Made by a program: the position numbers and the translations under genes. A DNA stretch of 64,000 bases, from contig CBDCXE010000006.1 in NCBI GenBank assembly GCA_965223725.1, positions 558,001 to 622,000 of the forward strand, in the 5' to 3' direction. The first letter of the stretch is position 1, and each line of letters begins with the position of its first letter. The notes below the pieces were generated by a model. That model saw nothing but the letters and a program-made list of their open reading frames with translations, was not told the origin of the DNA and ran no database searches. This DNA comes from CBDCXE01 sp965223725 [NCBI: Nitrospinota bacterium]. GTDB taxonomy: Bacteria > Nitrospinota_A > UBA7883. Shown here one piece after another: positions 43,648 to 59,121 of this stretch.

Positions 43648-44769
43648 GTGGGAAACGAGAAAAAATTGGATAAAGAAAAGCTGTTTTCTGAAATTATCAA
43701 CTCGGAAGCGCTCCTGCTTACGCCTGAAAGGAAAACCGACCTTATTGACTGGATCGGCCATATTCCTTTTGCTTTCTGGCTAATCGAAAAATTGCGTCCA
43801 AAAGTGTTTGTTGAGCTTGGTGTATATAAAGGAGATTCCTATTTCGCGTTCTGTCAATCGATGAAATTCTGCTTTGTTGATTGTCAAAGCTTTGCTGTTG
43901 ATACTTGGCGAGGCGATGGGCATACCACTCCTTATGATGAATCTGTATACATAGATTTTAAAGGCCATCATGATCATCGTTATGAAAGTTTTTCAACAAT
44001 TATGAGGATGACCTTTGATGAAGCTTTGGAAAAGATTGAAGATGGATCAGTAGACCTGTTGCATATCGATGGGTACCATACCTATGAGGCGGTGAAAAAA
44101 GATTATACAAGCTGGCTTCCTAAGTTGAGCGACTCTGGAGTTGTGTTGTTACACGATTCTGAAGTGCGGGAGAGAGAATTTGGTGTATGGAAGCTGTGGG
44201 AAGAAATAAAAGAAACTGCGCCTTCTTTCGCTCTTTTGCATTCACATGGGTTGGCTGTAATTGCGCCTGGTTCCAACCCTCCACAATTGATTAGTTCCTT
44301 ATCCAAGTTGAGTAAAGAAGACAGGCGCTTTGTAGAAAAATACTTTGAGCGGGCGGGTCAGCTGCTTATTGATCAAAAGAAAATAGACTACTTGCAAATG
44401 GAAGGCCCAATGAGTGAGCTGGAAGGTATTAGAGAGCATATAGATAAACTCTATAATGATATAAACCTGACACAGGAAAAAAGTTTATCAACAGATGAAC
44501 ATATAGTAAAGCTGTTCGATGCTGATAAGGGCTTGTATAAAGATATCAGGTCTGCTGATGAACATATAGCAAAGTTGTTTGACGCAATAGAAAATATTAA
44601 CGGTAAAGCCATATCTGCAGATGAGCACATTGCAAAATTATATGATAGCATTGATAGATTAAGTAAAGAAAATACTACGATTGGAGTAAAGCTAAATGAT
44701 ATCGATAGGCATATTGAGTTGCTATTTAATGCCATAGAAAAATTGAAAAGTGATGAACAAGGCGATTAG
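43648..44769 (+). CDS. Class I SAM methyltransferase with C-terminal heptad-repeat coiled coil
   Basis: 373 residues from GTG 43648. Residues about 30-210 are a Methyltransf_24-like domain: FVELGVYKGDSYFAFCQS (SAM loop), AVDTWRGDGHT, VDLLHIDGYHTYEAVKKDY and SDSGVVLLHDSEVRE. From about 225 to the end the protein is helical with a repeat EHIxKLFDAI at residues 263, 284, 305, 326 and 354. The spacings are 21, 21, 21 and 28, all multiples of seven, as in a coiled coil. It is first in a block with two glycosyltransferases and an ABC exporter. A chain-terminating or length-measuring role like WbdD is an inference. Confidence 0.8.
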   Translation: MGNEKKLDKEKLFSEIINSEALLLTPERKTDLIDWIGHIPFAFWLIEKLRPKVFVELGVYKGDSYFAFCQSMKFCFVDCQSFAVDTWRGDGHTTPYDESVYIDFKGHHDHRYESFSTIMRMTFDEALEKIEDGSVDLLHIDGYHTYEAVKKDYTSWLPKLSDSGVVLLHDSEVREREFGVWKLWEEIKETAPSFALLHSHGLAVIAPGSNPPQLISSLSKLSKEDRRFVEKYFERAGQLLIDQKKIDYLQMEGPMSELEGIREHIDKLYNDINLTQEKSLSTDEHIVKLFDADKGLYKDIRSADEHIAKLFDAIENINGKAISADEHIAKLYDSIDRLSKENTTIGVKLNDIDRHIELLFNAIEKLKSDEQGD

Positions 44770-44778
44770 GGGAATGGA

Positions 44779-46185
44779 TTGACTAAGTCTGTTAGTAATT
44801 GGCGTAAACTAGTATCGTTTTTTAAAGAGTCGCGCAGGGCCAGGGGAACCTTCGCCGCTATATTCGAATCGATAGAAAAGATACGTGACGTGCTGGCCAT
44901 TGCGACAAGCGTAAAGCTGTCGTTGCCCTTCACCACAGCAAAACCAGGCGCCGCGCCCGATCGTTTTGATAAAATTTCACACCCTGATGGGCTTCGTTTG
45001 CTAGGTGAGCTGGACATGGCGCTGGAAATGCCTGAGTTTACTGTTAAACAGGGCCTTGAGCCGACTCTGAACATAATGCTTCCCACATTGGAACCGACAA
45101 TTATATTCGGCGGTTATATAGCTTTTTTGAACATGATTGGAAAGTTACGAAAGAAAGGAGAAGCTTTAAGAATCATAATATGTGACCGATATCCATATGA
45201 AACAGAACGCTTGCGATTGCGAAATGATATGGCAAACCATGGGTTGATTTCCGAGTCTGTTGGAGGTTTGCCAATATTTTTTGCTTATGGAGATAAAGAG
45301 AATTGTCTTTTTGGAGAAAATGATCGATTTTTGGCTTACTCATGGGTTACCGCGCATTTGGCCCATCAAGTCAGCCAGGAAGTTAATGGAGCGCCATTTA
45401 CGTTTTTCATTCAGGAGTATGAGCCGATATTTTATCCGAATAACGCTCATCGCGCAGCTGCGGAGGAAGCTTATACATTTCCCCACAATGCTATTTTCAA
45501 TAGTGAGCTTCTATCAAAATATTTTCAAATGAATAAAAAGGGTGTGTTTCAGGAAAATGGGAATGGGCGACACGTCTCATTTCATCATTCCCTTTCCAAA
45601 ATTCGCACGCCAGACGCAAGTGAACTATCAAAGCGAAAAAATAAAAAGCTAATTTTCTATGCGCGGCCAGAGCAGCACGCCGAAAGAAACCTGTTTGCCA
45701 CAGGTGTGAGGGCGATACGAAAGGCTATTAAAGATAATATTTTCGATGCGGATTGGGAGTTTTATGGTATTGGAAGTTTGTCGTTTGATGAAGAGGTATT
45801 TTTGAGCCCCGCAAAAACTTTATCAGTTATGCCAAGGATGTCTCTGGTAGAGTATGAAAGAAGTTTGTGCGATTATGATATAGGCATGGCGTTAATGTAT
45901 GCGCCACATCCCAGTGTGCCGCCTATGGAGATGGCTGCCGCTGGTATGCCTACCGTTACGACGACCTATGTGAACAGGACCTCTGAGGATATGTCGGCTA
46001 TTTGCGGCAACTTAATCGCTGTCGAGCCAAGGACGGACGAGCTGGTGACTGCATTAAAAGAAGCGGTGCGACGAGCCGACAACTATGACGACCGGGTGAA
46101 ACAGGCTTCGTTTAAGTGGCCAAGGGGTTGGGATGAGAGTTTTGATGACGCCACTATCGGCGCTATCAGGAAGCTGTTTTGGTAG
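44779..46185 (+). CDS. WsaF-like rhamnosyltransferase-family glycosyltransferase
   Basis: 468 residues from TTG 44779. Segments typical of the WsaF group: LEPTIIFGGYIAFLNMIGKL (GG(Y)-type acceptor loop), ICDRYPYETERLRLRND, FLAYSWVTAHLAHQVSQEV, TFFIQEYEPIFYPNNAHRAA, then the nucleotide-binding half with KLIFYARPEQHAERNLF and YDIGMALMYAPHPSVPPMEM-AAAGMP. GT4-like two-Rossmann architecture. It probably adds a deoxyhexose to the exported glycan; linkage and donor are unknown. Confidence 0.82.
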   Translation: MTKSVSNWRKLVSFFKESRRARGTFAAIFESIEKIRDVLAIATSVKLSLPFTTAKPGAAPDRFDKISHPDGLRLLGELDMALEMPEFTVKQGLEPTLNIMLPTLEPTIIFGGYIAFLNMIGKLRKKGEALRIIICDRYPYETERLRLRNDMANHGLISESVGGLPIFFAYGDKENCLFGENDRFLAYSWVTAHLAHQVSQEVNGAPFTFFIQEYEPIFYPNNAHRAAAEEAYTFPHNAIFNSELLSKYFQMNKKGVFQENGNGRHVSFHHSLSKIRTPDASELSKRKNKKLIFYARPEQHAERNLFATGVRAIRKAIKDNIFDADWEFYGIGSLSFDEEVFLSPAKTLSVMPRMSLVEYERSLCDYDIGMALMYAPHPSVPPMEMAAAGMPTVTTTYVNRTSEDMSAICGNLIAVEPRTDELVTALKEAVRRADNYDDRVKQASFKWPRGWDESFDDATIGAIRKLFW

Positions 46186-46200
46186 TAATGGTAACATTGG

Positions 46201-47313
46201 ATGACTGATTATTCCATCAGGGATAGCGCTCTTGCTGAAACCGCAAAATTGATTGATCGTTACGCGGTGGATTCACCTGAGTCACGAAACGGACCAGAAA
46301 TAGTATCCATAATCATAGTTAATTATAACAGTGGTGAGTATTTGGCTCAGTGTGCGGCTGCGCTAACCAAGCAAACCTATTCATCATTTCGTGTAATTAT
46401 TGTGGACAACAATTCAGAAGATCGTGGTTGGGTTGATGTCGCTGCTTCAGATAATCGGTTTCGGATACTGTTTTTAAATAAAAACCTTGGGTTCGCCGCC
46501 GGTAATAATATAGGAGCCTACCTGGAGCCTGCGCAGTTCATTGTTACCCTCAACGCAGATGCATTCCCGGAGCCTGAGTGGCTTGAGACATTGATAGCTT
46601 GCGCTATGAAGTCGAGTCCCGATATCGTCGCTTTTGGCTCTACACAACTACTTGATGGTGACGTCAACCTATTTGATGGAATAGGGGACCAATACTATTT
46701 CGCCGGCTACCCATGGCGATCCGGTTTTTGTCAGCCGGTTATGTCTCTTCCTGATGAGTATGAAACATTCAGTGTGTGCGCCGCAGCGGCATTATACAGG
46801 TCAGATGCATTTTGGGAGGAGGGTGGATTTGATTCAAGTTTTTTCTGCTATTGCGAAGACGTTGACCTTGGTTTTCGTATGCGTCTTGCCGGGCGCCATT
46901 GCCTTCAGGTTTCAAGGGCCAGGGTCAGGCATGTGGGTGGTGGTTCATCATCTAAAATATCGGGCTTGTCTGAAAGGTTGGGGAGCCGAAACACATTGTG
47001 GACATTGATTAAGAATATGCCATTTCCATTTTTGACTGTGGCTGTATTGTCTCACTTTGTCATAGAAATATTTTTTCAGGCTGTGGGTCTGATCTATTAT
47101 GATCGAAAGATAATGACTTTTAAACAACGTGTAGAGCAGCTTCGTTATCGAAGGGAAGGAATAATTGAAGCGGTATCCCGAATCGCAGATAGCATTAAAC
47201 AACGGCAATTATTGCAAAACAGACGCAAAGCGAGTACTATTTCGATTGCCCGTTTTATTACGTGGAACCCGTTGGCATTTTTACGGAGAAGAGAACTGAG
47301 TGGTTTTAAATAA
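46201..47313 (+). CDS. Family 2 glycosyltransferase (rhamnosyltransferase-like)
   Basis: 370 residues. GT-A fold: VSIIIVNYNSGEYLAQCAAA, VIIVDNNSEDRGWVDVAA, NLGFAAGNNIGAYLE, the donor-site region VTLNADAFPEPEWLE and FFCYCEDVDLGFRMRLAGRH, where ED(V)D is the catalytic-base motif. A hydrophobic C-terminal stretch (about 265-295) suggests membrane association. Members commonly transfer rhamnose in O-antigen synthesis. It lies 15 bases after the previous glycosyltransferase. Confidence 0.88.
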   Translation: MTDYSIRDSALAETAKLIDRYAVDSPESRNGPEIVSIIIVNYNSGEYLAQCAAALTKQTYSSFRVIIVDNNSEDRGWVDVAASDNRFRILFLNKNLGFAAGNNIGAYLEPAQFIVTLNADAFPEPEWLETLIACAMKSSPDIVAFGSTQLLDGDVNLFDGIGDQYYFAGYPWRSGFCQPVMSLPDEYETFSVCAAAALYRSDAFWEEGGFDSSFFCYCEDVDLGFRMRLAGRHCLQVSRARVRHVGGGSSSKISGLSERLGSRNTLWTLIKNMPFPFLTVAVLSHFVIEIFFQAVGLIYYDRKIMTFKQRVEQLRYRREGIIEAVSRIADSIKQRQLLQNRRKASTISIARFITWNPLAFLRRRELSGFK

Positions 47314-47370: not shown

Positions 47371-48162
47371 GTGCATTCTTTTTTAAATGACATGTTTTGG
47401 GTTGCCGGGAGAAGGAAAACCCTCTCGGCTCTGGTTGATGTTCGTGTTGAAACCAGTTATACCGGGTTGTGGCTTGGCCGCTTTTGGGGCAGTATTAATT
47501 ATATACTCATGGTGTTAACTATGACCGTGGTATATTCTGCGGTTTTAGGCGCGGATCCTTACGAGTATTTTCCACACCTGGCTCTTGGTTTGGCCTTATG
47601 GAATTTGATTTCCGCTCAAATGACTGATTCCTGCCGGTCTGTAAAGGATAATCTTAACCTCGCCCAGGAGTTTCCTTTTCCTCCTACGCTCTATTTTGCA
47701 GTTACGAATATAGTTGCGGCAAAAAACTTTCTGGAGCAAGGGCTGATCAGCTTAATCGGGTCCATATTGGCGCTAGGCCTTATGGATACACCTTTGCCAT
47801 ATCTGCAGGCGGTGTTTGGAGCTGTGATTGCGTTTGTCGCCTGTGGTTTGTTTGGTCTGTTTATTGGCATTATAGCAACTGCTTTACAAGATATATCCCA
47901 CCTTCTGAAAGCTATATTGCGTATTGCGTTTCTTGTGACGCCTATCATCTGGCAAAAAGATATGCGCCCAATTCCATCCTGGATATATAATGACAACCCT
48001 TTTTATCATCTCATCGAGCTTTTTCGAGCGCCACTTATGGGGGATGATGTTGCGGCGTTGAGTTATTGGGTTGCAATTTCAATGATATTTATTAGCCTTA
48101 TTTTGTGCAGTATTGCCTATCCTTCATTCAGAAAAACATATTTGTTATGGATCAACCGATAA
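47371..48162 (+). CDS. ABC-2 polysaccharide export permease (Wzm type)
   Basis: 263 residues from GTG 47371 with GAAGGAAAC upstream. Polytopic, about six membrane segments. The conserved N-terminal amphipathic region RVETSYTGLWLGRFWGSINY and later LALGLALWNLISAQMTDSCR, and the FLVTPIIWQKDMRPIPSWIY stretch before YNDNPFYHLIELFRAPLMG, match O-antigen/teichoic acid exporters. It pairs with the ATPase gene, whose start lies inside its last 16 bases. Confidence 0.9.
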   Translation: MHSFLNDMFWVAGRRKTLSALVDVRVETSYTGLWLGRFWGSINYILMVLTMTVVYSAVLGADPYEYFPHLALGLALWNLISAQMTDSCRSVKDNLNLAQEFPFPPTLYFAVTNIVAAKNFLEQGLISLIGSILALGLMDTPLPYLQAVFGAVIAFVACGLFGLFIGIIATALQDISHLLKAILRIAFLVTPIIWQKDMRPIPSWIYNDNPFYHLIELFRAPLMGDDVAALSYWVAISMIFISLILCSIAYPSFRKTYLLWINR

Positions 48163-48884
48163 TAGAGATTAACGACCTCACATTTGTCTATCCTGTAGAG
48201 TTGAAGACACATGCAGAAAAACTGGCTAAAATTGGAGGCCGGATCCTTAACATGGGAGGCAAGGGTGGGGTGTTGGCGTTGGAAAATGTAAATATATCAA
48301 TCTACAAGGGAGATCGGGTGGCCCTGGTTGGGCATAATGGCGCTGGCAAATCCACACTGCTCCGCCTTATAGCAGGTATTTACCATCCGCAAAAAGGGTC
48401 TGTTACAATTCGAGGGAAGATCGCCTCAATACTGAACCTGAACGCTGGTATGGTGGCAAATTTGTCCGGGTTAAAAAATATTAAGTTGCGATGTGATTTG
48501 CTCGGTTTGGATAGCTGTGAAGAAGTGTATGAAGATATAAAAGAGTTTTCAGAACTTGGTGATTATCTGGAGTTACCTATAAGACAATATTCTGCCGGAA
48601 TGAGAATGCGGCTTGCTTTTGCTATGGCTACAGCAGTAAAACCTGATATTTTGCTGATGGATGAATGGATCAATGCTGGTGATGAAAAGTTCAGGGAAAA
48701 AACCAAGGAACGTATGGAAAAGTTTGTAGATAGCTCATCGACTCTGGTACTTGCTTCACACAACCGCAATATTGTAAAAAATACTTGTAGCAGAATCATC
48801 CGTATAGAGCATGGTATTGTGGTCAAAGATGGCCCTATTGGTGAGTTTCCATTTTTCAATGATTATCCACAAGAAGCATCATAA
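48147..48884 (+). CDS. Polysaccharide export ABC ATPase (Wzt type, no C-terminal carbohydrate domain)
   Basis: 245 residues from ATG 48147. Walker A GHNGAGKSTLLRLIAGIYHP, signature motif QYSAGMRMRLAFAMATA and Walker B ILLMDEWINAGDEKFREK are all present. Wzt proteins that recognise terminated chains carry about 150-200 extra C-terminal residues; here the protein ends soon after the helical domain (EFPFFNDYPQEAS). This resembles exporters where synthesis and export are coupled. Confidence 0.92.
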   Translation: MDQPIIEINDLTFVYPVELKTHAEKLAKIGGRILNMGGKGGVLALENVNISIYKGDRVALVGHNGAGKSTLLRLIAGIYHPQKGSVTIRGKIASILNLNAGMVANLSGLKNIKLRCDLLGLDSCEEVYEDIKEFSELGDYLELPIRQYSAGMRMRLAFAMATAVKPDILLMDEWINAGDEKFREKTKERMEKFVDSSSTLVLASHNRNIVKNTCSRIIRIEHGIVVKDGPIGEFPFFNDYPQEAS

Positions 48885-48981: not shown

Positions 48982-49656
48982 ATGTTCGTTTCGATTCATA
49001 TCCCCAAAACGGCGGGAACAACCCTTGCCAAGGTATTTGATGATACTAGTAATCGGCGTGTCCTCTACGATTATGGCTCTGAAATGTCGCTGGAAGATGT
49101 TCGAACCTGTCGTGATGACTTTCGGGAGCATCGGGAGTTTATTAAAGGGTATTTCGAATATCTTCATGGTCATTTTCATTACCTGAAATATCATGACGTT
49201 TTTGGCGATTGCCCTGTTATAACCACCGTAAGGAACCCAACCGACAGAGTTGCGTCTCAATACAGGCATGTAGCTTTGCATGGCGACCCGAATGTGAAAC
49301 AGCATCAGATGGTCATGGATGGGGAGATTGATATAGTACGGTTTTCTATGTTTCAATATATTGGCAGCGCGCAATGGTATTTCCTGGAAGGGCGGGAGGT
49401 CAAGGATTATGATTATATTTTTATTCAGGAAAATATGACGCCATCTGTTGCGCATTTTGCAGAGAAATTTAAACTGCCAGCTATTACAGAATACATATCA
49501 TGGTTCGATAATTTGCCGAAGATTAATAAGCGTGAAGGGGCCAAGTGGGACACAAAAGCCATACCTGTGACAAAAAGCCAGCTAAAAGAAGTTACCAAGA
49601 ACTGCGTTAGAGATTATGAAATATATAATAAAGCGCTGGAAATTTACAAAAGATAA
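48982..49656 (+). CDS. Sulfotransferase-family protein
   Basis: 224 residues. P-loop for PAPS 5'-phosphate: FVSIHIPKTAGTTLAKVFDD. The 3'-phosphate site is VITTVRNPTDRVASQYRHVA, preceded by the LHGHFHYLKYHDVFGDCP stretch. This is the Sulfotransfer_2-like group that decorates carbohydrates. The RBS is AAGGAG. A paralogue sharing HGHFHYxKYxxxF and RxPxDRxxSxYRH is cut by the right edge of the window. Confidence 0.85.
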   Translation: MFVSIHIPKTAGTTLAKVFDDTSNRRVLYDYGSEMSLEDVRTCRDDFREHREFIKGYFEYLHGHFHYLKYHDVFGDCPVITTVRNPTDRVASQYRHVALHGDPNVKQHQMVMDGEIDIVRFSMFQYIGSAQWYFLEGREVKDYDYIFIQENMTPSVAHFAEKFKLPAITEYISWFDNLPKINKREGAKWDTKAIPVTKSQLKEVTKNCVRDYEIYNKALEIYKR

Positions 49657-49670
49657 TTATCAATGCGAAC

Positions 49671-51083
49671 ATGATATTCAGTTCTAATCTTTTTCTATAT
49701 ATTTTCTTACCTATCTTTGCCATTAACTATGCGCTGTGGCCAAACAAAAACCTGGTATTGGTTATTGCAAGCCTATGTTTTTACTCATGGGGAGAACCGA
49801 CTTACATTTTTTTGCTTTTATTTGTGTGTTTGGTCAACGCATTAATAGCCAAATTTATTGAACCTTCATGCGCTAATCGAAAAGCAGCTCTCATTTTAGG
49901 GGTTGGCTTCAATATAGTAATCTTGTTAATTTTCAAGTATCTCGGATTTTTTCTAACAAATTTAAATGTAGTTTTAGCTGAAATTGGTTTCCAGGATATA
50001 GTCATTATCGAACCGAAATTACCACTGGGTATATCATTTTTCCTTTTCCAAGCAATTACATATTTGGTTGACATATATAGAGGGCATTGCACCCCAGCCC
50101 GGAAAGCAAGTGACGTTATTCTTTATATATCTCTGTTTCCCCAGCTGGTTGCTGGCCCAATAGTTCGATATGAAGAGATTTATCAGGCTATTAAAAAAAG
50201 AAGTTCTAGTTGGAAACGGATTGTTGCAGGTACAGAGCGGTTTATATATGGTTTAGGTAAAAAAGTATTGATAGCTGATCAATTGGCAAAAGTCGTTGAT
50301 GAAATATATGCCCTGCCTGCCACTAGTCTTACGCCGGAATTGGCCTGGGCGGGGACAATATGCTTTGCCCTTCAAATATATTTTGATTTTTCAGGATACT
50401 CAGATATGGCCATTGGTATTGGTAAAGCTATTGGCTTTGATTTTCCTGAAAATTTCAATTATCCATATGTCGCCAAAAGTATTCAGGAGTTTTGGCGTCG
50501 ATGGCATATGACCCTCTCCCGATGGTTTCGCGACTATGTATACATCCCTTTGGGAGGGAATAGAAAATCTGCGGCAAGGACATATGTGAACCTTCTTATA
50601 GTATTTGTATTGACTGGATTTTGGCATGGCGCCGCATGGACATACCTTATATGGGGATTGATCCACGGTTTTTTCCTTGTATTAGAAAGGGTAGGGCTCT
50701 CTAAGGTATTAGCGAAGGTTTGGGCTCCAGTAGCTCATCTGTATATTTTTATTGTGATAACTTTAAGCTGGGTCTTTTTTAGAGCAGAATCACTAAACGG
50801 CGCTATTACAATGATCAAGACAATGCTCTTTTTGTCGCCGGGCGCAGTTAACGCTCCTTTGTTCCGTGAAGTATTTTCACCCCATATGATTTTTGTTATT
50901 TTCGTGGGGTTTGCCATATCTCTAGGAGCGGGACGATGGGCAGTTGAAAATATATACAGCAGCAATGAAGATGATATAGAAGTCGGGTGGATTAAAAGTG
51001 GGGCGCTTCTTGCCATTATGGTGCTGGCTATGGCTGGGCTTGCGACTGAATCTCACCAAGCGTTTATATATTTCAGGTTCTAG
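49671..51083 (+). CDS. MBOAT O-acyltransferase (AlgI-like)
   Basis: 470 residues, about ten membrane segments. AlgI/DltB family: FFLFQAITYLVDIYRGHC, LFPQLVAGPIVRYEEIYQAI, IYFDFSGYSDMAIGIGKAIG, NFNYPYVAKSIQEFWRRWHM, TLSRWFRDYVYIPLGGNRKS and the catalytic-His region LTGFWHGAAWTYLIWGLIHG. It passes acetyl groups across the inner membrane for polysaccharide acetylation, working with the AlgX/AlgJ-like protein encoded 17 bases downstream. Confidence 0.93.
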   Translation: MIFSSNLFLYIFLPIFAINYALWPNKNLVLVIASLCFYSWGEPTYIFLLLFVCLVNALIAKFIEPSCANRKAALILGVGFNIVILLIFKYLGFFLTNLNVVLAEIGFQDIVIIEPKLPLGISFFLFQAITYLVDIYRGHCTPARKASDVILYISLFPQLVAGPIVRYEEIYQAIKKRSSSWKRIVAGTERFIYGLGKKVLIADQLAKVVDEIYALPATSLTPELAWAGTICFALQIYFDFSGYSDMAIGIGKAIGFDFPENFNYPYVAKSIQEFWRRWHMTLSRWFRDYVYIPLGGNRKSAARTYVNLLIVFVLTGFWHGAAWTYLIWGLIHGFFLVLERVGLSKVLAKVWAPVAHLYIFIVITLSWVFFRAESLNGAITMIKTMLFLSPGAVNAPLFREVFSPHMIFVIFVGFAISLGAGRWAVENIYSSNEDDIEVGWIKSGALLAIMVLAMAGLATESHQAFIYFRF

Positions 51084-51100
51084 GTAAGGCATCGAATAAT

Positions 51101-52702
51101 ATGTCATCAGGGGTGGGAAAAAAGAGAGTGCTTTTATCAGAATTGGCGCTCATCATTATCATATCTTTTCTTGTGATAGCGCCGTCTCTTTTTGTCATGT
51201 TGGGGAAAGTTGACAATACTGTGTTTGGTGAAAACAGGAAAATGGCGTCCTTCCCATCTTTTTTTAATATTGATGATATAGATAATTGGCCATCCGCATT
51301 CGAAAAATATTATAACGACCACCTTGCGCATAGACGACCGCTGGTTAAACTGAATAATTGGATAAAGAGTCACCTCTTTAAGACAGCCCACAGCAAGAAA
51401 GTTTTAGTGGGCGAAAACGGCTGGCTTTTTCATAAGCTCCCTGACATGGTGTTACAACATCAAGGAATCCAGAACTATAAACGATATCATGTGCGTCGTA
51501 TAAGAATGGCTTTGGAAGAAAGGCGCGACTGGCTTAGAGAAAAAAACATTGATTTTCTGGTTATTGTCGTTCCAGACAAATTATCTGTTTATCAGGAATA
51601 TGCGCCACGTTGGCTACCACATAAAAAAGGCTTGTTAGTTCGAGAAATGTTGCAAGAAGAGTTATCTCGATCAACTTTGCCGTTGAGTTATCTTGACCTT
51701 AGCAAACATTTGATTCGAGCAAAAGAGAAGGAAGAAGCTCTTTTATATTACAGAAGAGATACACACTGGAACCACTACGGCGCTTTTATTGGATATCAAA
51801 AAATAGCAAATACATTTCCAAAGTTTTTCAAATCTTTTAAGGAGGAAAATGTTGCGTCAGTACCAATCGAACGCGTGAATAATCTGGCAACGATGAATGG
51901 GCTTAAAGAAGTAGTAACTACCCAGCGTCCATTTCCGGACAAGCTGTCTAAACTAAATAGTACAACTTATATGGAGTCACCTTCACAATTCAAGAAATTT
52001 CCATCAATTCTAAAACTGGCTGAAAAAGCTGGCTATGAATTGATTAGCAATAATAGTGGAAGTAAAAAAACAATGTTTTTTATTGCTGATTCATTTGCTA
52101 CATGGAACAAGGAATATTTGGCAAGTTCATATAAAAACACTTTTATAGTAAATACATGGAGTCAATCATGGAGTCGTATGGAACAATTTCCAATAGATGC
52201 GATTAATACAATTAAACCAGATCTAGTTCTTATGCAATTTTCTGAAAGTCGCCTTGGTGTTAAACGAATAAGCCCATTCATTGTCCCACCATATGGCGGC
52301 GCAAACCCCCCTCAAGTGAGGCAAGCTCGGCTGAGGCGACTCTACAAATCGACTAGGGACACTGCTTCGGCTACCGTTAAAAAGGTGTCTGGCGCTGATG
52401 GTAAATCGTTTAATTTAGAATTAAACAAGCCAACAGCGAAAATGGTCATTGCACGCTTTGAAGTAATGGCGCATAAAGCGACGACTCTTTCTGTGCAATC
52501 CAACTTTAGGAAAAAGGAGAAGTGGAGCGATCTATGCTATAAATATGACGAAATGACAATCATCCATATAAAGCCGGGACGTCACACTGTATATCTTTGT
52601 GGGCAGATAAAAGAAAATATTTCTCACCTTACATTTGCAACAACTGAGCCACAGGACCTAACTATAGTAAAAGTGGATGTGCGACCGCATCTAGATCCGT
52701 AG
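51101..52702 (+). CDS. AlgX/AlgJ-like SGNH acetyltransferase
   Basis: 533 residues. One N-terminal membrane segment (about 15-35) then a periplasmic SGNH-like domain: LVGENGWLFHKLPDMVLQHQ, VIVVPDKLSVYQEYAPRWLP, the catalytic-type DTHWNHYGAFIGYQKIA motif, and MFFIADSFATWNKEYLASSY with the probable nucleophile Ser. The last about 150 residues form a separate beta-rich domain (from about KKVSGADGKSF). With the MBOAT partner it should O-acetylate the exported glycan. Confidence 0.88.
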   Translation: MSSGVGKKRVLLSELALIIIISFLVIAPSLFVMLGKVDNTVFGENRKMASFPSFFNIDDIDNWPSAFEKYYNDHLAHRRPLVKLNNWIKSHLFKTAHSKKVLVGENGWLFHKLPDMVLQHQGIQNYKRYHVRRIRMALEERRDWLREKNIDFLVIVVPDKLSVYQEYAPRWLPHKKGLLVREMLQEELSRSTLPLSYLDLSKHLIRAKEKEEALLYYRRDTHWNHYGAFIGYQKIANTFPKFFKSFKEENVASVPIERVNNLATMNGLKEVVTTQRPFPDKLSKLNSTTYMESPSQFKKFPSILKLAEKAGYELISNNSGSKKTMFFIADSFATWNKEYLASSYKNTFIVNTWSQSWSRMEQFPIDAINTIKPDLVLMQFSESRLGVKRISPFIVPPYGGANPPQVRQARLRRLYKSTRDTASATVKKVSGADGKSFNLELNKPTAKMVIARFEVMAHKATTLSVQSNFRKKEKWSDLCYKYDEMTIIHIKPGRHTVYLCGQIKENISHLTFATTEPQDLTIVKVDVRPHLDP

Positions 52703-52776: not shown

Positions 52777-53454
52777 CTATTTTGGTTTAGAGCCGAGTAT
52801 GAAAAACTGTTTTCCTAGAAGAGGCCAGATCAGTGGGATTCGAAGATAAAGGGCTATGAGGGCTGGATGTTTTGGAAACCGCGATTTAGTAGAATAAGGT
52901 ACAAACCGGTCTATTAATCGATCAACACTAAATCCAGATTTCAGGAACGCTTCGGCGCACGATAAATGTGATAAAGGCAGATGATGGTCATAAAAATCCC
53001 AATATTGGCCTGGGACGTACCTGATATTCGGTTGTAAAGCCATAAATCGACCACCCGGTTCGAGGATACGTAAAACTTCCGCCAAAAGTGTATCAAAGGT
53101 CTTTTTGTCTGGCAAATGCTCGAAAAAATTACTGGTAAATACAACATTGACATCCTCATCCTTAATGAATGAGAGATCTGTTGCGGAGCCTAAATGAAAA
53201 GTTACATCAGGACCAACAGATAAGGCGGAATCAGGGTTTAAATCCACGGCAAGTTTTTTCCCTGCGTTAATATGTCTGCTGAACTCCCCATATCCTGACG
53301 CCAAATCCAGAAGCGTGTCGCTTGGATTGATATACTGCTGGAAAAATTTTTCGCACAACACTTTCCAAACCATATCCTTTTCGAGTTTCTCCTTTTCAGA
53401 GAACCTGTGCCGATAGAGAACATCTACCTTCTCCACTGCTCTATCGCTCCACAC
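52777..53454 (-). CDS. Class I SAM methyltransferase
   Basis: 225 residues from GTG 53454, overlapping the upstream GT2 stop by 14 bases. Methyltransf_11/23-type: TLLDLASGYGEFSRHINAGK (SAM loop), AVDLNPDSALSVG, VVFTSNFFEHLPDKKTFDTL, LAEVLRILEPGGRFMALQPN and YYDHHLPLSHLSCAEAF-like (WDFYDHHLPLSHLSCAEAF). The substrate is unknown; it is last in the block with DprE1/DprE2-like genes. Confidence 0.88.
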   Translation of the reverse strand: MWSDRAVEKVDVLYRHRFSEKEKLEKDMVWKVLCEKFFQQYINPSDTLLDLASGYGEFSRHINAGKKLAVDLNPDSALSVGPDVTFHLGSATDLSFIKDEDVNVVFTSNFFEHLPDKKTFDTLLAEVLRILEPGGRFMALQPNIRYVPGQYWDFYDHHLPLSHLSCAEAFLKSGFSVDRLIDRFVPYSTKSRFPKHPALIALYLRIPLIWPLLGKQFFILGSKPK

Positions 53455-54157
53455 GCTCGTAATCAGCAGAAAAAATATTTTTCCATATTTTTAGCATATC
53501 TTTAATAGTAGCCAAGATATTTTTTACAGACACACTGTTACCTTGCCCAAAAGTTCGTGGAAAGGTCTGTATGCCAACCTGCCCGACCTGGTATCCTTTG
53601 AGCATGGATTTAATAGCTATTTCGGCGCCAATAAACGGGCTGTCAGATTCAAGCTTTATATCATCCGCGACTTTCTTTTTCATCATTCGCAGACCGGTGG
53701 AAATATCGCGAAAATGGGTGCGAAAAAGGAATCTTAATATGACATTATAGACCCAGGAGACAAAAATTCTCCAGTTCGAATAAATCTTCTTATAACGAAA
53801 GGTTATTATGAGATCATAATGATCTTTGACCAGAAAAATTTTGTTAAACTCGCCCACATCATACTGGTTATCTCCATCAAGCATTAATATCCACTCGTAT
53901 TGACACGCGTTTATTCCTGTTCGAATAGCAGCCCCATAACCTCGGTTTTCCGGGTGATGAATAACTGATATATTTTTATGTTCGCCAGCCAGTTCATCAG
54001 CTATCGCGCCTGATCGATCGGGCGATCCATCATCCACAATAATAACTTCATATGGACAGCCAAGACTCTCAAGCAGGGCAATGGCGTTTTCTGCTACAGT
54101 ACGGACGGTCCCCTCATCTCCATATACCGGAAAAAAAAGGCTTGCTGATGTAGGCAT
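53441..54157 (-). CDS. Dpm1-like family 2 glycosyltransferase
   Basis: 238 residues: SASLFFPVYGDEGTVRTVAE, YEVIIVDDGSPDRSGAIADE, HHPENRGYGAAIRTGINACQ, WILMLDGDNQYDVGEFNKI (DGD donor metal site), and FRDISTGLRMMKKKVADD. This is the dolichol/polyprenyl-phosphate sugar synthase type, without C-terminal membrane segments. It probably moves a sugar from a nucleotide donor to a polyprenyl phosphate. It sits 13 bases after the DprE2-like gene. Confidence 0.87.
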   Translation of the reverse strand: MPTSASLFFPVYGDEGTVRTVAENAIALLESLGCPYEVIIVDDGSPDRSGAIADELAGEHKNISVIHHPENRGYGAAIRTGINACQYEWILMLDGDNQYDVGEFNKIFLVKDHYDLIITFRYKKIYSNWRIFVSWVYNVILRFLFRTHFRDISTGLRMMKKKVADDIKLESDSPFIGAEIAIKSMLKGYQVGQVGIQTFPRTFGQGNSVSVKNILATIKDMLKIWKNIFSADYERVER

Positions 54158-54170
54158 AATAATATTTAAC

Positions 54171-54908
54171 CTAAAAATTCATGCGACGGAAAATACTCCA
54201 TGGTGTCCACTTTAAAGCAGCGGATATCCACATCCAAAAACTGGGAATATACCATACCCCCCCCTTATTACCTAGGTTATTAACAACCTTCTCTGCAATA
54301 CGCTCCGGACTGGCTTTAGGGATAGGAGTAGACATCCCGAATGCCTGGCCAGTGTCGAGATAGCCAACAATGTAAAAAGATACCATTACACCGTATGGAG
54401 CAAATCCATGACGTATCGACTCGAAAAAACTGGCCAAAGCCCGTTTAGCCGCGCTGTAGTAAATATTTGCATTCCTCCCTCTGGCAGCGGCGATAGAACC
54501 AAATCCTACAATATCACCTTTGCGCTCTTTTATTATTTTAGGAGAAAAATAAGATATAATTTCGCTCACTGAAGAGAAATTGGCGGCCAATACTTCTATG
54601 CCTATAGTTTCATCCGGAGGAAATCGATCTTCGTCCCAGGTTGCGCCAATCGGAAATAGCATTCCATTTAGCTCTCCGGTTTTGTCTATCGCCTTCTCAA
54701 GTTTACTGAGGTCAGGGCGGGATGAAGCGTTGAAGGAAAGGGCCACCGGACAAATGGAAACGCCATAGCGTATGGCGCAGTCTGTGGCAAGCGCATCCAG
54801 GTCACGCTGGTCACTGGAGACAATAACCAGGTTGGCTCCTATCCTGGCCAGCGCTACTGTAATTGCTCTTCCGAGGCCTGAAGACGCCCCAACGACAAGG
54901 TATGTCAT
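54171..54908 (-). CDS. SDR oxidoreductase, DprE2-like
   Basis: 245 residues. LVVGASSGLGRAITVALARI cofactor loop, GDIVGFGSIAAARGRNANIY with catalytic YYSAAKRALASFFESIRHGF, and GYLDTGQAFGMSTPIPKASP late in the fold. Overlap with the FAD oxidase gene (4 bases, ATGA) mirrors the DprE1-DprE2 pair that epimerises decaprenyl-phospho-ribose to arabinose in actinobacteria. The C-terminal LGNKGGVWYIPSFWMWIS stretch is encoded across a G8 run. Confidence 0.82.
   Translation of the reverse strand: MTYLVVGASSGLGRAITVALARIGANLVIVSSDQRDLDALATDCAIRYGVSICPVALSFNASSRPDLSKLEKAIDKTGELNGMLFPIGATWDEDRFPPDETIGIEVLAANFSSVSEIISYFSPKIIKERKGDIVGFGSIAAARGRNANIYYSAAKRALASFFESIRHGFAPYGVMVSFYIVGYLDTGQAFGMSTPIPKASPERIAEKVVNNLGNKGGVWYIPSFWMWISAALKWTPWSIFRRMNF
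54257..54264. repeat. C8/G8 homopolymer inside the DprE2-like gene
   Basis: Eight C on the plus strand (eight G in the coding strand) over the codons Lys-Gly-Gly-Val-Trp, about 30 codons before the stop. A slip of one base would replace the C-terminus. Confidence 0.5.
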
Positions 54909-56239
54909 AGTCCTGCTCTCATAAGTAATTCAGACATAAATACCCTGTTTGGGTCAAGTTTATTAATTCGGTCAATAGTAAGTTCATACTCTGGATAACT
55001 GGCAGACACGACCTCCTGTGAAAGTCGGGAGTCTTTAATCAGGTTGGGAATTGCTTTATGCTCCAGGCAAAGCTCGTCAAAAGCTGTGAGAAATATCGAT
55101 GTAGAACTTGTCTGGGCCATATCAAGCGTAACGCATATCCCAGGGCCTGCAAAGCGAAAACCAGTTTGCAAGCCAGATGATTTTTTTAATGATATCATGA
55201 CACCAGGAGCATTGTGATTAAACAGCAACGCTTCCAAAAGTTCAAGGAATGCCCCTGCTTTTTCATCAGTTATAATTACCTGCGCTTCCGCCAAACCACG
55301 CTTGCCATAGGCTAAAAAATAATATGGGTTGGCGGCGAAAGGAAAAGTTGATGCAAATAACGATATATTGTTCGTAGAAGTTTTTTTCTCTTCTTGATGC
55401 AAATAAAATTTTAAAGCTGCATTTCTCAATGGGCTGGCCCAAAGGGAGATAGGTGAAATAGAGCGAGCTCGAGCGGTGATGGGTCGGTATGAGGGTGGAG
55501 ATGTGAATTTACCATTTCCCTCTGCTGGTTCACCTGTATACAAAAATCCTCGACCGAATAATCCTTTCGTGGGAGACGCAACATGGAATGTATAGGCAAA
55601 ATTGGAAGAAGAAACAGCGCTCGAACGTAATTGTTCCAAACCTTCTGTCAATGAGTTTAGTGAACTGCGATGGAGAAGAGTCTTTTCTCCCTTTTTAATT
55701 TGTTCAAGACGAAGAGTGGCGCTTACGATAATTCCTGTGGAGCCATAACCACCACAGGTCAAATCGAAAAGTTCCTTGTTTTCTTCTTCCGACAACGTAA
55801 TAAGACCATGAGCAGGATGATAGAGGACTAATGAGATTACACAAGAATGAAAGCTTCCTGCAACTCCAAAATTTTTTCCGTTTACATCTGCAGCAATGCA
55901 ACCTCCAATAGTGATATCTGGATAGCCAGGTTGGACACCAAGGGCAAGCCCACGCCGGGAGGTGGCGCCTAAAAGTTCCCCCAGGGTTATACCAGCCTCA
56001 ACAGTGACTGTTTTATTATTTTCATCCAGGAAAAGGATTCTGGAAAAAGAACGCATGGAGACCGTAGTGACACCTTGTCCAAAAGAGGCCGCTGCATAGG
56101 AATAGCCGCCACCTTGAGCAATATATGGCCCTTTAGCCCACGTTTGGTCAAACACACGGTATCTATCAGGCCGCGCAAAGTCAGAAGAGATAGATATCTG
56201 GCCATCGAAAGATAAAAATTTGCTTAACTCTGTTTTCAC
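54905..56239 (-). CDS. FAD-binding oxidase, DprE1-like
   Basis: 444 residues from GTG 56239. FAD_binding_4-type N-domain: IAQGGGYSYAAASFGQGVTT, ILFLDENNKTVTVEAGITLG, and PGYPDITIGGCIAADVNGKN-FGVAGSFHS, which matches the DprE1 family pattern TIGGAIAxDxHGKN. In actinobacteria DprE1 oxidises decaprenylphosphoryl-ribose at C2 and DprE2 reduces it to the arabinose form. The adjacent SDR, Dpm1-like GT2 and a divergent polytopic protein support a lipid-phospho-pentose (or other hexose C2-epimer) route. A DPPR synthase (UbiA family) is not in the window. Confidence 0.85.
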   Translation of the reverse strand: MKTELSKFLSFDGQISISSDFARPDRYRVFDQTWAKGPYIAQGGGYSYAAASFGQGVTTVSMRSFSRILFLDENNKTVTVEAGITLGELLGATSRRGLALGVQPGYPDITIGGCIAADVNGKNFGVAGSFHSCVISLVLYHPAHGLITLSEEENKELFDLTCGGYGSTGIIVSATLRLEQIKKGEKTLLHRSSLNSLTEGLEQLRSSAVSSSNFAYTFHVASPTKGLFGRGFLYTGEPAEGNGKFTSPPSYRPITARARSISPISLWASPLRNAALKFYLHQEEKKTSTNNISLFASTFPFAANPYYFLAYGKRGLAEAQVIITDEKAGAFLELLEALLFNHNAPGVMISLKKSSGLQTGFRFAGPGICVTLDMAQTSSTSIFLTAFDELCLEHKAIPNLIKDSRLSQEVVSASYPEYELTIDRINKLDPNRVFMSELLMRAGL

Positions 56240-56799
56240 GTATTATTATGCTTGTTGATTATCTGTATTGTAGCAATTAATATTAAATTACTTACCGTCT
56301 GCCTAAATTATTAGCCACCATGCCTGGAGAAAATAAAGAGATTTAGTCTATGCTCATAACTGTATTACAATAACGATTTAAATAAGTTAACTTCCTGGTT
56401 TTATCATAATATAGCAGAGTTAAAATAAATTCTATATTGCCATATTATTTTTAAGTAAACTTTTTCCAAAATTATATAAGTAATAACCTCTGGTATGTGA
56501 TATTTATTTTATAAGAAATTTGCAAACAGTATCATGTGTGTTATCCTGTGTTGGATTTATGCCAAATAATGCAAAGTAATTATAACCGATAACAAATTAA
56601 CTAATAAAGTCTTAAGATGCAATTGTATGGAGACTGCCAAAAAAAATGCGGACTTGTACCTGCAAGTTAAGCAAAAAATCTGTGAAAAGCGCTTGCTTAT
56701 TTAGAACCTGACGATAAAACTAAAATAAAATCGCCTGCATCAGTCTGGCAATGGCAACATCACATGTTTGTTTAAATAACACTATTTTAATTGTCATTT
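56240..56799. other. 560-base AT-rich divergent intergenic region
   Basis: Strongly AT-rich DNA between the DprE1-like operon (leftward) and the polytopic protein gene (rightward), presumably with both promoters. I find no supported gene. One 17-codon frame at 56617-56670 lacks an SD. A small palindrome ACTTG-TACCTG-CAAGT lies at about 56652-56667. No tRNA or known RNA fold is recognised. Confidence 0.55.
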
Positions 56800-59121
56800 A
56801 TGCTTAAACCAATTGTATACACTGCACTTACTTTTACGGTAATTATTATTTTTACCGTATTCAACCCACTTTTGCCTGGTGTGGGCCTCGATATTTCATG
56901 GTATCTTGCAAACAACCAAGCAGTAGCGCAGAACGTGGTGTTTGGTGAGAATTTGCTAACTACGCTTGGTCCATACCCATCAATTTATTCGAACGTCTAT
57001 CATCCTGATATTCACCAAATGGCGTTACTAGGTGGCATACTGATTGGCGTATGCTATTCAGTATTATTATTGCTCATTGCGATTGAGTTAGACTGGAAAT
57101 GGTTGATCCTTTACATTTGCTTCTTATTTGCCTGTCGTGTCCCGTTTGATACTTATTTGTTTTCATATATCTTCTTTATGTCAATAGTTGTCTACCGTAT
57201 GACCCTGCCCATCTCATCCAATCTTGTGTTGGAGAACACTGCACAAAACAAATGTTTTTATATTTTAGCGCTTGTACCATTGGGACTTTTGTTACTAACC
57301 AAAGGATCCGTCATACCATATATAGTATTAGCTGTTGGTATATGCGTCATTATGTTTTGGATGAGCCGTGATAAAGCATTCGCTTTAATTACTATCATAG
57401 TGCCAGTTGCCAGCTCTTTAGCTTTCTGGGTTGTTTCTGGACAACCTTTATGGGCCTTTCCAAAGTTTGTTGGTAATATGCTTGAAGTTATATTTGGATA
57501 TTCAGATGCGATGTCAGCATCAGGACCAGGTGGCTCATCGCATATTGCTTTGTATTTAATAACATCAGCGATGATTCTTTACCTAACGACAAAAAAAGAG
57601 TTTGGTCCACTCGTTTCAAGACTTCTGCTGTTTACAACGTTTTCATTATTTTTGTACGTTTCATTTAAAGCCGGTTTTGTTAGAGCCGGTATTGGCCATC
57701 AAATGATGGCTAGCACTTCTCTGGTCATAGCGGCGTTATCCATATTACTATTATCTAAAAGTAAATTGCGGTTAATCATACTGCCATTTGTAATAATTAC
57801 ATGGGTATTTATTGACGGTCATTTTTATAATAAGCCGGCGGAGAACTTGACCGGGTTACTGCGCTGGGCTGTTGGTGACAGGAATTTTGAAGAAGAATAT
57901 GAAAATAAATTTAGTGAAATTAACAGGAAATACTATATTCCTAAACTAACAGGGACAGTGGATATCTATTCTTTTGGTCAGTCATTTTTACTAGCTTCCG
58001 GAAATAAGTATAACCCACGACCAACGGTGCAAAGTTTTGCGGCGTACACACCATATCTGGCTAGCCTGAACGAGAGATACATTCGAGGATCCAACGCGCC
58101 AGACAACATATTATTTAGGGTGGAAACCATAGATCACCGATTTCCAAGCCTTGATGATGGAATAAGTTGGCCCACTTTGCTTAACAGATATGAAATATAT
58201 GGATATGATGAATATTTGGATTTATTCTACTTGAGGAAAAAGGCCGAGGCAAAGGGTGATCTTTTTGATGATGAAACAGTTGATATCCAAGGCAATTTCC
58301 AACAGGAGATATCACTACCTGATAGTGAGGAGGTGTTGTTTGCAGAATTTGATATTAAGCCAACATTATTTGGCAGGGCTATGTCTATTATCTATAAACG
58401 CCCCAAAATTGAAATCAGTATTGTCCTGGAAAGTGGACGATCCCGAACTTATCGAATAATTCCTGGTATGGCCAAGTCTGGTTTTATTATTTCTCCGTTA
58501 ATTGAACGCACAAGAGAATTTATATTTCTAAACAAGCCATACCAGAGCTATTTATCTCCAAATCGTGTGAAAAGTATAGTAATTTCGTCAACTCAAGGTA
58601 TTTTTAAATCGTGGGACGAACATTTCATGCTGCGACTTGGAAAGGTAAAGATAGAGTCAAATAGAGACGCCAACCTGTTAAAAGTCATAGATTACGATTA
58701 CTCAAAAATGGCGCTACACCCAGCCCAATCTATTAAAATTAGTGTAAAGTGCCAGGGAGGAGTCGATACAATAAATGGCTTCAGGGTAGATAAAAAAATA
58801 ATAAACGTTTCTAAAACACTCTTGGTCTATGGATGGTCCACTGCATATTCAACAAAAAGTAAAGTCGCCAGCAATATTTATTTGACTTTAACCGATATGC
58901 ATGGAGAGACTAAATATTTGGAAACAAAAAAAGTTGTCAGGCCAAATCTTGCAGAGTATTTTAATAATCCAATGCTATTAAACGCTGGATATTTTGCGAA
59001 TATTAATATTTCTAACATTGAAGGGAAATATGCTTTAGGCATATCCCATATGCTTAATGGCTCAATCAAACATTGTGCTAGTCCTCAAATTCAGCTAAAT
59101 ATTAATAAGCAACCTAAATAA
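56800..59121 (+). CDS. Large polytopic membrane protein, possible GT-C glycosyltransferase
   Basis: 773 residues from ATG 56800 (TTG 56791 possible). The N-terminal half has about ten membrane segments. The first periplasmic loop carries an acidic residue close to the membrane (LPGVGLDISWYLANNQAVAQ), as GT-C enzymes do. It is followed by LLTTLGPYPSIYSNVYH and a second loop VSGQPLWAFPKFVGNMLEVI. From about residue 360 it is a soluble domain (PRPTVQSFAAYTPYLASLNE, ISWPTLLNRYEIYGYDEYLD). I know no named family with certainty. The divergent DprE1/E2-like operon suggests it may use a polyprenyl-phosphate sugar. Confidence 0.7.
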   Translation: MLKPIVYTALTFTVIIIFTVFNPLLPGVGLDISWYLANNQAVAQNVVFGENLLTTLGPYPSIYSNVYHPDIHQMALLGGILIGVCYSVLLLLIAIELDWKWLILYICFLFACRVPFDTYLFSYIFFMSIVVYRMTLPISSNLVLENTAQNKCFYILALVPLGLLLLTKGSVIPYIVLAVGICVIMFWMSRDKAFALITIIVPVASSLAFWVVSGQPLWAFPKFVGNMLEVIFGYSDAMSASGPGGSSHIALYLITSAMILYLTTKKEFGPLVSRLLLFTTFSLFLYVSFKAGFVRAGIGHQMMASTSLVIAALSILLLSKSKLRLIILPFVIITWVFIDGHFYNKPAENLTGLLRWAVGDRNFEEEYENKFSEINRKYYIPKLTGTVDIYSFGQSFLLASGNKYNPRPTVQSFAAYTPYLASLNERYIRGSNAPDNILFRVETIDHRFPSLDDGISWPTLLNRYEIYGYDEYLDLFYLRKKAEAKGDLFDDETVDIQGNFQQEISLPDSEEVLFAEFDIKPTLFGRAMSIIYKRPKIEISIVLESGRSRTYRIIPGMAKSGFIISPLIERTREFIFLNKPYQSYLSPNRVKSIVISSTQGIFKSWDEHFMLRLGKVKIESNRDANLLKVIDYDYSKMALHPAQSIKISVKCQGGVDTINGFRVDKKIINVSKTLLVYGWSTAYSTKSKVASNIYLTLTDMHGETKYLETKKVVRPNLAEYFNNPMLLNAGYFANINISNIEGKYALGISHMLNGSIKHCASPQIQLNINKQPK

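What the first reader, a model, noticed from the sequence alone, without database searches (positions are those of the whole stretch)
43648..44769. Methyltransferase with a heptad-periodic tail beside an ABC exporter: possible WbdD-like chain-length ruler
The tail repeats EHIxKLFDAI at residues 263, 284, 305, 326 and 354, with spacing 21, 21, 21 and 28, all multiples of seven, so a regular coiled coil is likely. In E. coli O9a, WbdD (methyltransferase/kinase plus coiled coil) caps the glycan, and the coiled-coil length sets chain length. Here a Methyltransf_24-type enzyme without a kinase domain lies two genes upstream of the Wzm/Wzt-type exporter genes. If real, this is an independently built ruler. 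WbdD and its role are established knowledge; the analogy is inference.
Basis: partly seen in the sequence, partly recalled or inferred. Interest (0 to 1): 0.72.

Follow-up and report, generated by a model that had tools for sequence, protein, structure and literature searches.

The report
Coiled-coil methyltransferase beside a glycan exporter
This gene makes an enzyme that probably caps growing surface sugar chains from the end of a long rod, a known bacterial way to set chain length; here the rod has been cut from its sugar-adding partner, and the exporter lacks the part that normally checks for the cap.

Summary
The tail repeats at 263/284/305/326/354 are real, hydrophobicity has a 3.5-residue period, and AlphaFold2 gives one helix from 223 to 367.

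The gene belongs to a large family: a Methyltransf_24 domain, then a coil of variable length, often fused to glycosyltransferases. Linked Wzm+Wzt exporters occur in 44 of 80 genome loci, against 2 of 20 for another methyltransferase family. Viral-contig relatives show no exporter and mostly short tails.

The ruler analogy is sensible but not new. Coiled-coil terminators, including methyltransferase-only WbdD (E. coli O8) and a methyltransferase-coil-GT fusion, are published.

(1) The next ORF, a WsaF-like glycosyltransferase, is in the same frame, just past one TAG. Two other bacteria carry the same domain order in one chain. The cut falls between the coil and the motif that ends most stand-alone relatives where it was found.
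(2) The exporter ATPase lacks the cap-reading Wzt_C domain, as in 13 of the other 52 readable loci, judged by length.
(3) In E. coli group 3 capsules the same family varies in coil length (447-548 residues) at 94-100% identical methyltransferase.

Chain-length control itself is untested. New variant of a known kind.

The parts
43648..44769 (+). Methyltransferase plus coiled-coil gene, 373 aa, GTG start, TAG stop
43810..44157 (+). Methyltransf_24 domain, residues 55-170; holds the alignment-invariant E56 L57 G58, D85, H139, D141, G142, H144, H169, D170
44314..44748 (+). One continuous helix (residues 223-367), coiled coil; in residues 258-369 a positions mostly Ile (10 of 16), d mostly Leu (8 of 16), e often Phe/Tyr (6 of 16), g often His (5 of 16)
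   Evidence: AlphaFold2; periodicity; composition
44434..44736 (+). Five HIxxL[FY][DN] repeats starting at residues 263, 284, 305, 326, 354
44767..44769 (+). In-frame TAG that ends the coil gene; then 9 nt in the same frame
44768..44772 (+). AGGGG, a possible ribosome-binding site 6 nt before the TTG start of the next ORF (read by eye, not proven)
44779..46185 (+). WsaF-like GT-B glycosyltransferase, 468 aa (WsaF_N, WsaF_C; matches solved WsaF 2x0d/2x0e)
44788..44847 (+). SVSNWRKLVSFFKESRRARG near the start of the GT ORF; loosely like the SxSW[RKQ] motif that ends the coil in relatives (resemblance judged by eye)
46201..47313 (+). GT2 glycosyltransferase
47371..48162 (+). Wzm-type ABC permease
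48105..48884 (+). Wzt-type ATPase without C-terminal Wzt_C/CBM domain
48982..52702 (+). Sulfotransferase-like, MBOAT and AlgX-like genes of the same run (probable decoration genes)

Best explanation
It is a chain-capping sugar O-methyltransferase carried on a coiled-coil spacer: the terminator of an ABC-exported surface glycan, working like WbdD. The coil holds the methyltransferase away from the polymerising glycosyltransferases (the WsaF-like GT, perhaps the GT2), so only chains that reach the methyltransferase are methylated and stopped. The window's version is a split form of the methyltransferase-coil-GT proteins seen in relatives. An in-frame TAG separates the coil from the motif and GT that follow it in the fusions, and the GT restarts at a TTG. 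The two chains must then meet by contact rather than by a covalent link. Because Wzt has no cap-binding domain, the methyl cap probably stops growth but is not read by the exporter. Shown: predicted helix, domain order, frame, exporter linkage, missing Wzt_C. Inferred: capping activity, ruler function, restart at the TTG, contact between the split parts.
For: One helix 223-367, mean pLDDT 92.1 for the model; 3.5 periodicity. The best fold matches are O-methyltransferases, first MeT1 of M. hassiacum. Methyltransf_24 in 72 of 72 aligned members. Exporter pair in 44 of 80 loci, 5 of 6 in a sample drawn without regard to exporters, 2 of 20 for TylF. The same domain order in one chain in L061 and L081. 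The coil ends at an SxSW[RKQ] motif in 41 of 72 members, 20-258 residues after the methyltransferase, and 15 of 17 cleanly parsed stand-alone members that have it end 18-28 residues from its start. Residues after the conserved methyltransferase core (window 165): 94-459 in the 17 stand-alone members (ORF under 660 aa) with an exporter pair; under 60 in 18 of 20 viral-contig rows and 104 in two, L097/L098; none of these viral loci shows the exporter. Coil length varies between E. coli relatives with 94-100% identical methyltransferase.
Against: No glycan structure or activity is known. No Wzt_C in the window, although published terminators typically come with one (PMC11127046, passage). No SxSW motif in the methyltransferase ORF itself. 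phmmer against the PDB finds only CmcI weakly, not WbdD. 29 of 80 loci show no exporter in the DNA held, and the 12 stand-alone members among them still have 60-238 residues after the core. The fused WsaF relative L081 has no exporter in the DNA held, and in L061 it lies about 6 kb away. Several E. coli coil indels (96, 32, 25, 34, 15) are not heptad multiples. The relative in L177 has degenerate methyltransferase motifs yet keeps a long tail (motifs compared by eye).
Confidence: 0.55

Rival explanations
1. The enzyme methylates internal sugars or decorates side residues; the coiled coil only docks it to the membrane or polymerase and does not measure length.
For: Coil length is very variable (20-258 in 41 members) and authors of the E. 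[quoted passage not shown] The exporter lacks the cap-reading domain. For WsaE, a rhamnan-capping methyltransferase-GT, methylation in vitro did not depend on chain length (PMC2943079, passage).
Against: Published proteins with this layout (WbdD, WbbB, O7 ORF6) are terminators (PMC11231755). Viral-contig relatives without exporter mostly lack a coil-sized tail.
Confidence: 0.27
2. The TAG is a fresh nonsense change or an assembly error in a single methyltransferase-coil-GT gene, so the annotated 373-aa protein is a truncation and not a natural unit.
For: Same frame, 9 nt gap; single-chain relatives L061, L081; the split lies upstream of the motif that stand-alone relatives often keep.
Against: A plausible AGGGG site 6 nt before a TTG start, though several other starts of the cluster show no clear site, so this decides little. 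A relative (L177) also has methyltransferase-coil and WsaF as two genes, in different frames. Two neighbouring genes share a frame one time in three by chance.
Confidence: 0.2
3. The TAG is read through at some rate, so the cell makes both a free capping rod and a rod joined to the polymerase.
For: Frame is kept across the stop. Nothing else.
Against: No suppressor or special stop context was looked for or found, no relative seen shares the arrangement, and a restart site is available.
Confidence: 0.03

Closest known systems
WbdD of E. coli O8 (methyltransferase only) and O9a (methyltransferase-kinase)
   Same: N-terminal methyltransferase, no kinase (O8), C-terminal coiled coil, polymerase GT as a separate protein, ABC exporter (PMC3482155 passages; PMC11231755 passages)
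   Different: No sequence match to WbdD structures; no family end motif on the rod protein; Wzt without CBM; WsaF-like partner instead of WbdA
K. pneumoniae O7 ORF6 and O12 WbbB (terminator-coil-polymerase in one chain)
   Same: Same order as the window's two ORFs taken together: capping domain, coil, GT (PMC11231755)
   Different: O7 has a kinase, a CBM-like domain and GT2 modules; WbbB caps with an N-terminal GT (its sugar, Kdo, is recalled); here the chain is cut after the coil
WsaE/WsaF of Geobacillus stearothermophilus (S-layer rhamnan)
   Same: Methyl-capped, ABC-exported glycan; the window GT matches WsaF
   Different: In that system the methyltransferase is in WsaE, with two other GT domains, and Wzt is predicted to bind the cap (PMC2943079 passages)
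E. coli group 3 capsule 'putative methyltransferase' with variable coiled coil
   Same: L006 kin: same Methyltransf_24-coil family, exporter ATPase without Wzt_C, coil length polymorphism (PMC13171606 passage)
   Different: Much longer coil (447-548), capsule-type export genes, extra C-terminal region. That L006 belongs to group 3 is inferred from its gene content and that paper

Membership tests
Methyltransf_24 (PF13578) | Score above the curated cut-off | tested here: met
   76.3 bits against 26.3
Coiled-coil terminator of ABC-exported glycans (general class) | Capping-type enzyme at the far end of an extended coiled coil | tested here: met
   layout only: methyltransferase, then predicted coil
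Coiled-coil terminator of ABC-exported glycans (general class) | Linked to Wzm/Wzt and polymerising GT | tested here: met
   family 44 of 80 against control 2 of 20
Coiled-coil terminator of ABC-exported glycans (general class) | Exporter ATPase with C-terminal CBM (typical, not universal) | tested here: not met
   no Wzt_C in window Wzt; three Wzt C-terminal queries find nothing convincing elsewhere in the window (best E 0.048)
Coiled-coil terminator of ABC-exported glycans (general class) | Adds the terminal group and sets chain length | not testable with these tools
   needs glycan analysis
WbdD | Sequence kinship of the methyltransferase with WbdD | tested here: not met
   phmmer against PDB chains at E<=0.01 returns only CmcI; no profile comparison with WbdD was made
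WbdD | Kinase domain (O9a form only; O8 form lacks it) | tested here: not met
   no kinase model
WbdD | C-terminal membrane-binding helix and polymerase recruitment site on the rod protein | tested here: inconclusive
   family end motif absent from the ORF and loosely present at the start of the next ORF; no membrane test
WsaF (for the next ORF 44779-46185) | WsaF_N and WsaF_C domains and PHPSxPPxE signature | tested here: met
   PHPSVPPME, the signature Tyr is Val (signature from PMC2943079)

The most novel reading that the evidence does not exclude
There is a second class of coiled-coil rulers that works with exporters unable to read the cap. In the window and in 13 of the other 52 readable loci, E. 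coli group 3-type capsules among them, length is set by the capping rod alone and export is not gated by the cap. Coil copy-number changes, as in the E. coli capsules, would then act as a natural length dial. The window adds a rod severed from its polymerase by one stop codon.
Probability: 0.27. Interest if true: 0.66.

Novelty: new variant of a known kind. Interest (0 to 1): 0.5.

Why it matters
How cells set polysaccharide length without a Wzz-type regulator is understood for a few O antigens in which a coiled-coil terminator is paired with a cap-reading exporter. This family suggests that rod and cap reader can be uncoupled, in fused and split forms, and that close E. coli relatives differ naturally in rod length. 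That makes 'does rod length set glycan length without cap recognition' testable by comparing existing isolates.

Tried and rejected
Independent invention of the ruler: rejected, published paradigm. Globular tail: rejected. DNA-level tandem duplication: not seen. Naming the organism: no genome is held for the window. FtsH is 64% identical to a deltaproteobacterial MAG at best among 20 genomes; EPSP synthase had no match at E<=1e-110 in 63 genomes of that class, a threshold that shows little. Dimer or trimer: not resolved, only single chains were modelled; Ile at a and Leu at d would favour a dimer by recalled rules, while WbdD is a trimer. Extra stretch in L060: model too poor there (most of 266-405 below pLDDT 50). 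The long ORFs at WsaF hits L184/L185 turned out not to contain this methyltransferase. First control (window MT at 60379) matched 1 of 249 genomes and was dropped for TylF. Promoter and terminator scans were at shuffle level. A first tail count for viral rows scored unparsed rows as zero; it was redone with a uniform measure, which is the one reported.

Rows dropped: alignment A2 uses 71 of 80 genome loci; left out were near-copies L022, L023, L024, L027, L041, L046 and short or duplicate L031, L042, L044. In the Wzt-length count L011 is cut by the contig end, and near-copies (Azospirillum, L044/L046, and L222/L223, whose lengths and scores are nearly the same) were not removed. Two of 19 stand-alone motif parses failed. 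Of 79 viral loci only rows of at least 120 bits were examined (23, 20). TylF control: 20 of 25 listed places fetched, several on short contigs. E. coli: 12 of 17 hits fetched. Stand-alone or fused was set by ORF length (660 aa), so L052 (656 aa, with a GT-like end by eye) counts as stand-alone; L006, first listed as fused, was set to alone by hand.

Full report
What is there. The ORF at 43648-44769 encodes 373 residues: a Methyltransf_24 domain (residues 55-170, 76.3 bits) and a tail with HIxxL[FY][DN] repeats at 263, 284, 305, 326 and 354. Hydrophobicity in residues 225-373 peaks at a period of 3.5, with none of 2000 shuffles as strong; 3.6 and 21 are not raised. AlphaFold2 on a 72-row alignment gives a globular methyltransferase and a single helix 223-367 (mean pLDDT 92.1; the blocks from 341 on are 75, 74, 59 and 39). 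In residues 258-369, at a positions 10 of 16 residues are Ile, at d 8 of 16 are Leu, and e often holds Phe/Tyr and g His. The first four 21-residue units are alike in protein (7-11 of 21 per pair) but mostly use different codons, and no DNA tandem repeat is found.

The cluster. Downstream on the same strand come a WsaF-like GT, a GT2, Wzm, Wzt, a sulfotransferase-like gene, MBOAT and AlgX-like genes. The WsaF-like protein matches solved WsaF at 5e-27 over 96-442 and has PHPSVPPME where WsaF has PHPSYPPLE. That signature was proposed to mark rhamnose use (PMC2943079, passages). The Tyr is Val here, so the sugar is uncertain, and queries for the four dTDP-rhamnose genes found no convincing match in the 64 kb (best: a weak hit of the nucleotidyltransferase query, E 0.001). 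The nearest curated transporter models are the galactan-export Wzm and Wzt, both well below their cut-offs (103.5 against 380 and 217.7 against 400 bits).

A split gene. The methyltransferase ORF ends at TAG 44767-44769, and the GT ORF begins at TTG 44779 in the same frame. In Thiomonas delicata (L061, 769 aa) and Chitinasiproducens palmae (L081, 900 aa) one chain carries Methyltransf_24, then coil, then WsaF_N and WsaF_C. In the family the coil commonly ends in an SxSW[RKQ] motif (41 of 72 members, 20-258 residues after the methyltransferase, median 116); of 17 cleanly parsed stand-alone proteins that have it, 15 end 18-28 residues from its start. The window's methyltransferase ORF has no such motif; a loose version (SVSNWRKL) opens the GT ORF. 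This suggests a fused ancestor cut between coil and motif. Against a mere error, AGGGG stands 6 nt before the TTG, and another genome of the class of L008 (L177) carries the methyltransferase-coil and WsaF as two genes in different frames, followed by rmlC-, rmlD- and rmlB-like genes (rmlC by eye). The frame coincidence alone has a one-in-three chance.

The family. All 72 aligned rows (71 loci and the window) match Methyltransf_24. By ORF length 48 of 80 are fused-size and 32 stand-alone. On a quick tree the fused/stand-alone label needs 19 changes, at least 6 forced by well-supported branches, so modules have been joined and parted repeatedly; the window's branch is long (1.01) and its place is not strongly supported. 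Wzm and Wzt lie together within the DNA held in 44 of 80 loci and Wzt alone in 7; 29 have neither. The same test on 20 loci of another methyltransferase family (TylF) gave 2 pairs and 1 Wzt alone (Fisher p = 2e-4; near-copies among the 80 make this too strong). In 249 Pseudomonadota genomes, the sample centred on L061's own genome, 7 had a family member including that genome; of the other 6, all fetched, 5 had the pair. Viral-contig relatives are a useful contrast. None of the 23 rows shows the exporter. Counting residues after the conserved methyltransferase core (165 in the window), 18 of 20 viral rows have 58 or fewer and two, L097/L098, have 104; the 17 stand-alone genome members with an exporter pair have 94-459 (L052 and L060 hold more than a coil there). 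The link is not absolute: the 12 stand-alone members without a detected exporter have 60-238.

The missing cap reader. Among 54 loci with paired Wzm/Wzt (43 of the genome loci, 5 plasmid records, 5 of the random sample, the window), the ATPase's C-terminal extension is bimodal: 39 with 168-238 residues, 14 with at most 40 including the window, and one cut by a contig end. Pfam names the long form Wzt_C in the three tested and finds none in the window, L003 or L006; the others were judged by length alone. In four of the short ones (L039, L052, L061, L082) the exporter lies 3.6-6 kb from the methyltransferase, so it may not serve the same glycan. A published statement is that chain terminators typically come with a CBM-bearing ATPase that recognises the terminal group (PMC11127046, passage). 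The window belongs to the exception class.

Coil length in nature. The family occurs in E. coli loci that look like group 3 capsules. The query methyltransferase is found in 17 of 5426 E. coli genomes. Twelve fetched copies (11 distinct DNA sequences) are 816-917 aa with methyltransferase domains 94-100% identical to L187, and coils of 447-548 residues that differ by indels such as 96, 32, 25, 28, 34 and 15. Most of these are not heptad multiples; 25 and 32 equal two or three heptads plus eleven, an after-the-fact reading. [quoted passage not shown] A 2023 paper on these capsules names the methyltransferase gene without a coil or a length role (PMC10433991, term search and two passages).

What is known. 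Coiled-coil terminators are an established, widespread strategy (PMC11231755: abstract, passages and the first part of the discussion). That paper describes a methyltransferase-kinase-coil-GT-GT protein in K. pneumoniae O7 and notes that some orthologues end after the coil. WbdD of E. coli O8 is methyltransferase-only, and the O9a coil drives a trimer (PMC3482155, passages). In the listings of searches I saw no paper on this Methyltransf_24 family as terminators; none of those searches used the family's name, and the library lacks most subscription journals.

Verdict. Most likely (0.55) a capping methyltransferase on a spacer rod, split from its polymerase and working with an exporter that cannot read the cap. 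The predicted rod, the domain order, the frame, the exporter linkage and the missing Wzt_C are shown. Capping, ruler function, restart at the TTG and contact between the parts are inferred.

Noticed in passing
L184, L185 (L185:6087-8195): In L185 a Sulfotransfer_3 domain is followed by a long coiled-coil-like stretch (by eye) ending in QSWKAV, next to GT and WsaF-like genes; L184 looks the same. A possible sulfate-adding terminator rod. The window's Wzm/Wzt queries found nothing in these 20 kb; a flippase-like ORF (by eye) lies in L184.
   Followed up: partly
L177:7199-8233: Methyltransferase-coil protein whose methyltransferase motifs are degenerate (HIGKVR for HIDGLH, VDLWAGHG for VELGTHKG) though the tail remains: perhaps a dead capping domain kept for its rod.
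   Followed up: partly
L060, L069 (perhaps L222, L223, by length only): An extra stretch between methyltransferase and coil, beta-rich by eye in L060 and L069; L060, L222 and L223 have exporters without the C-terminal extension, L069 has one with it. A relocated sugar-binding domain is possible; AlphaFold2 did not resolve it in L060.
   Followed up: partly
L088, L090, L092 and other viral contigs: The same methyltransferase domain, mostly without a coil-sized tail, on viral contigs, up to 55% identical to family members.
   Followed up: partly
window 53441-59121: DprE1-like oxidase and SDR reductase, a GT2 and a large, membrane-type protein (by eye) with no Pfam match: possibly a lipid-linked pentose route.
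   Followed up: no
window 48982-49656, 62281-63270, 63270-63998: Three sulfotransferase-like genes within 15 kb (the one at 62281 scores just under Pfam's cut-off), suggesting a sulfated surface glycan.
   Followed up: no
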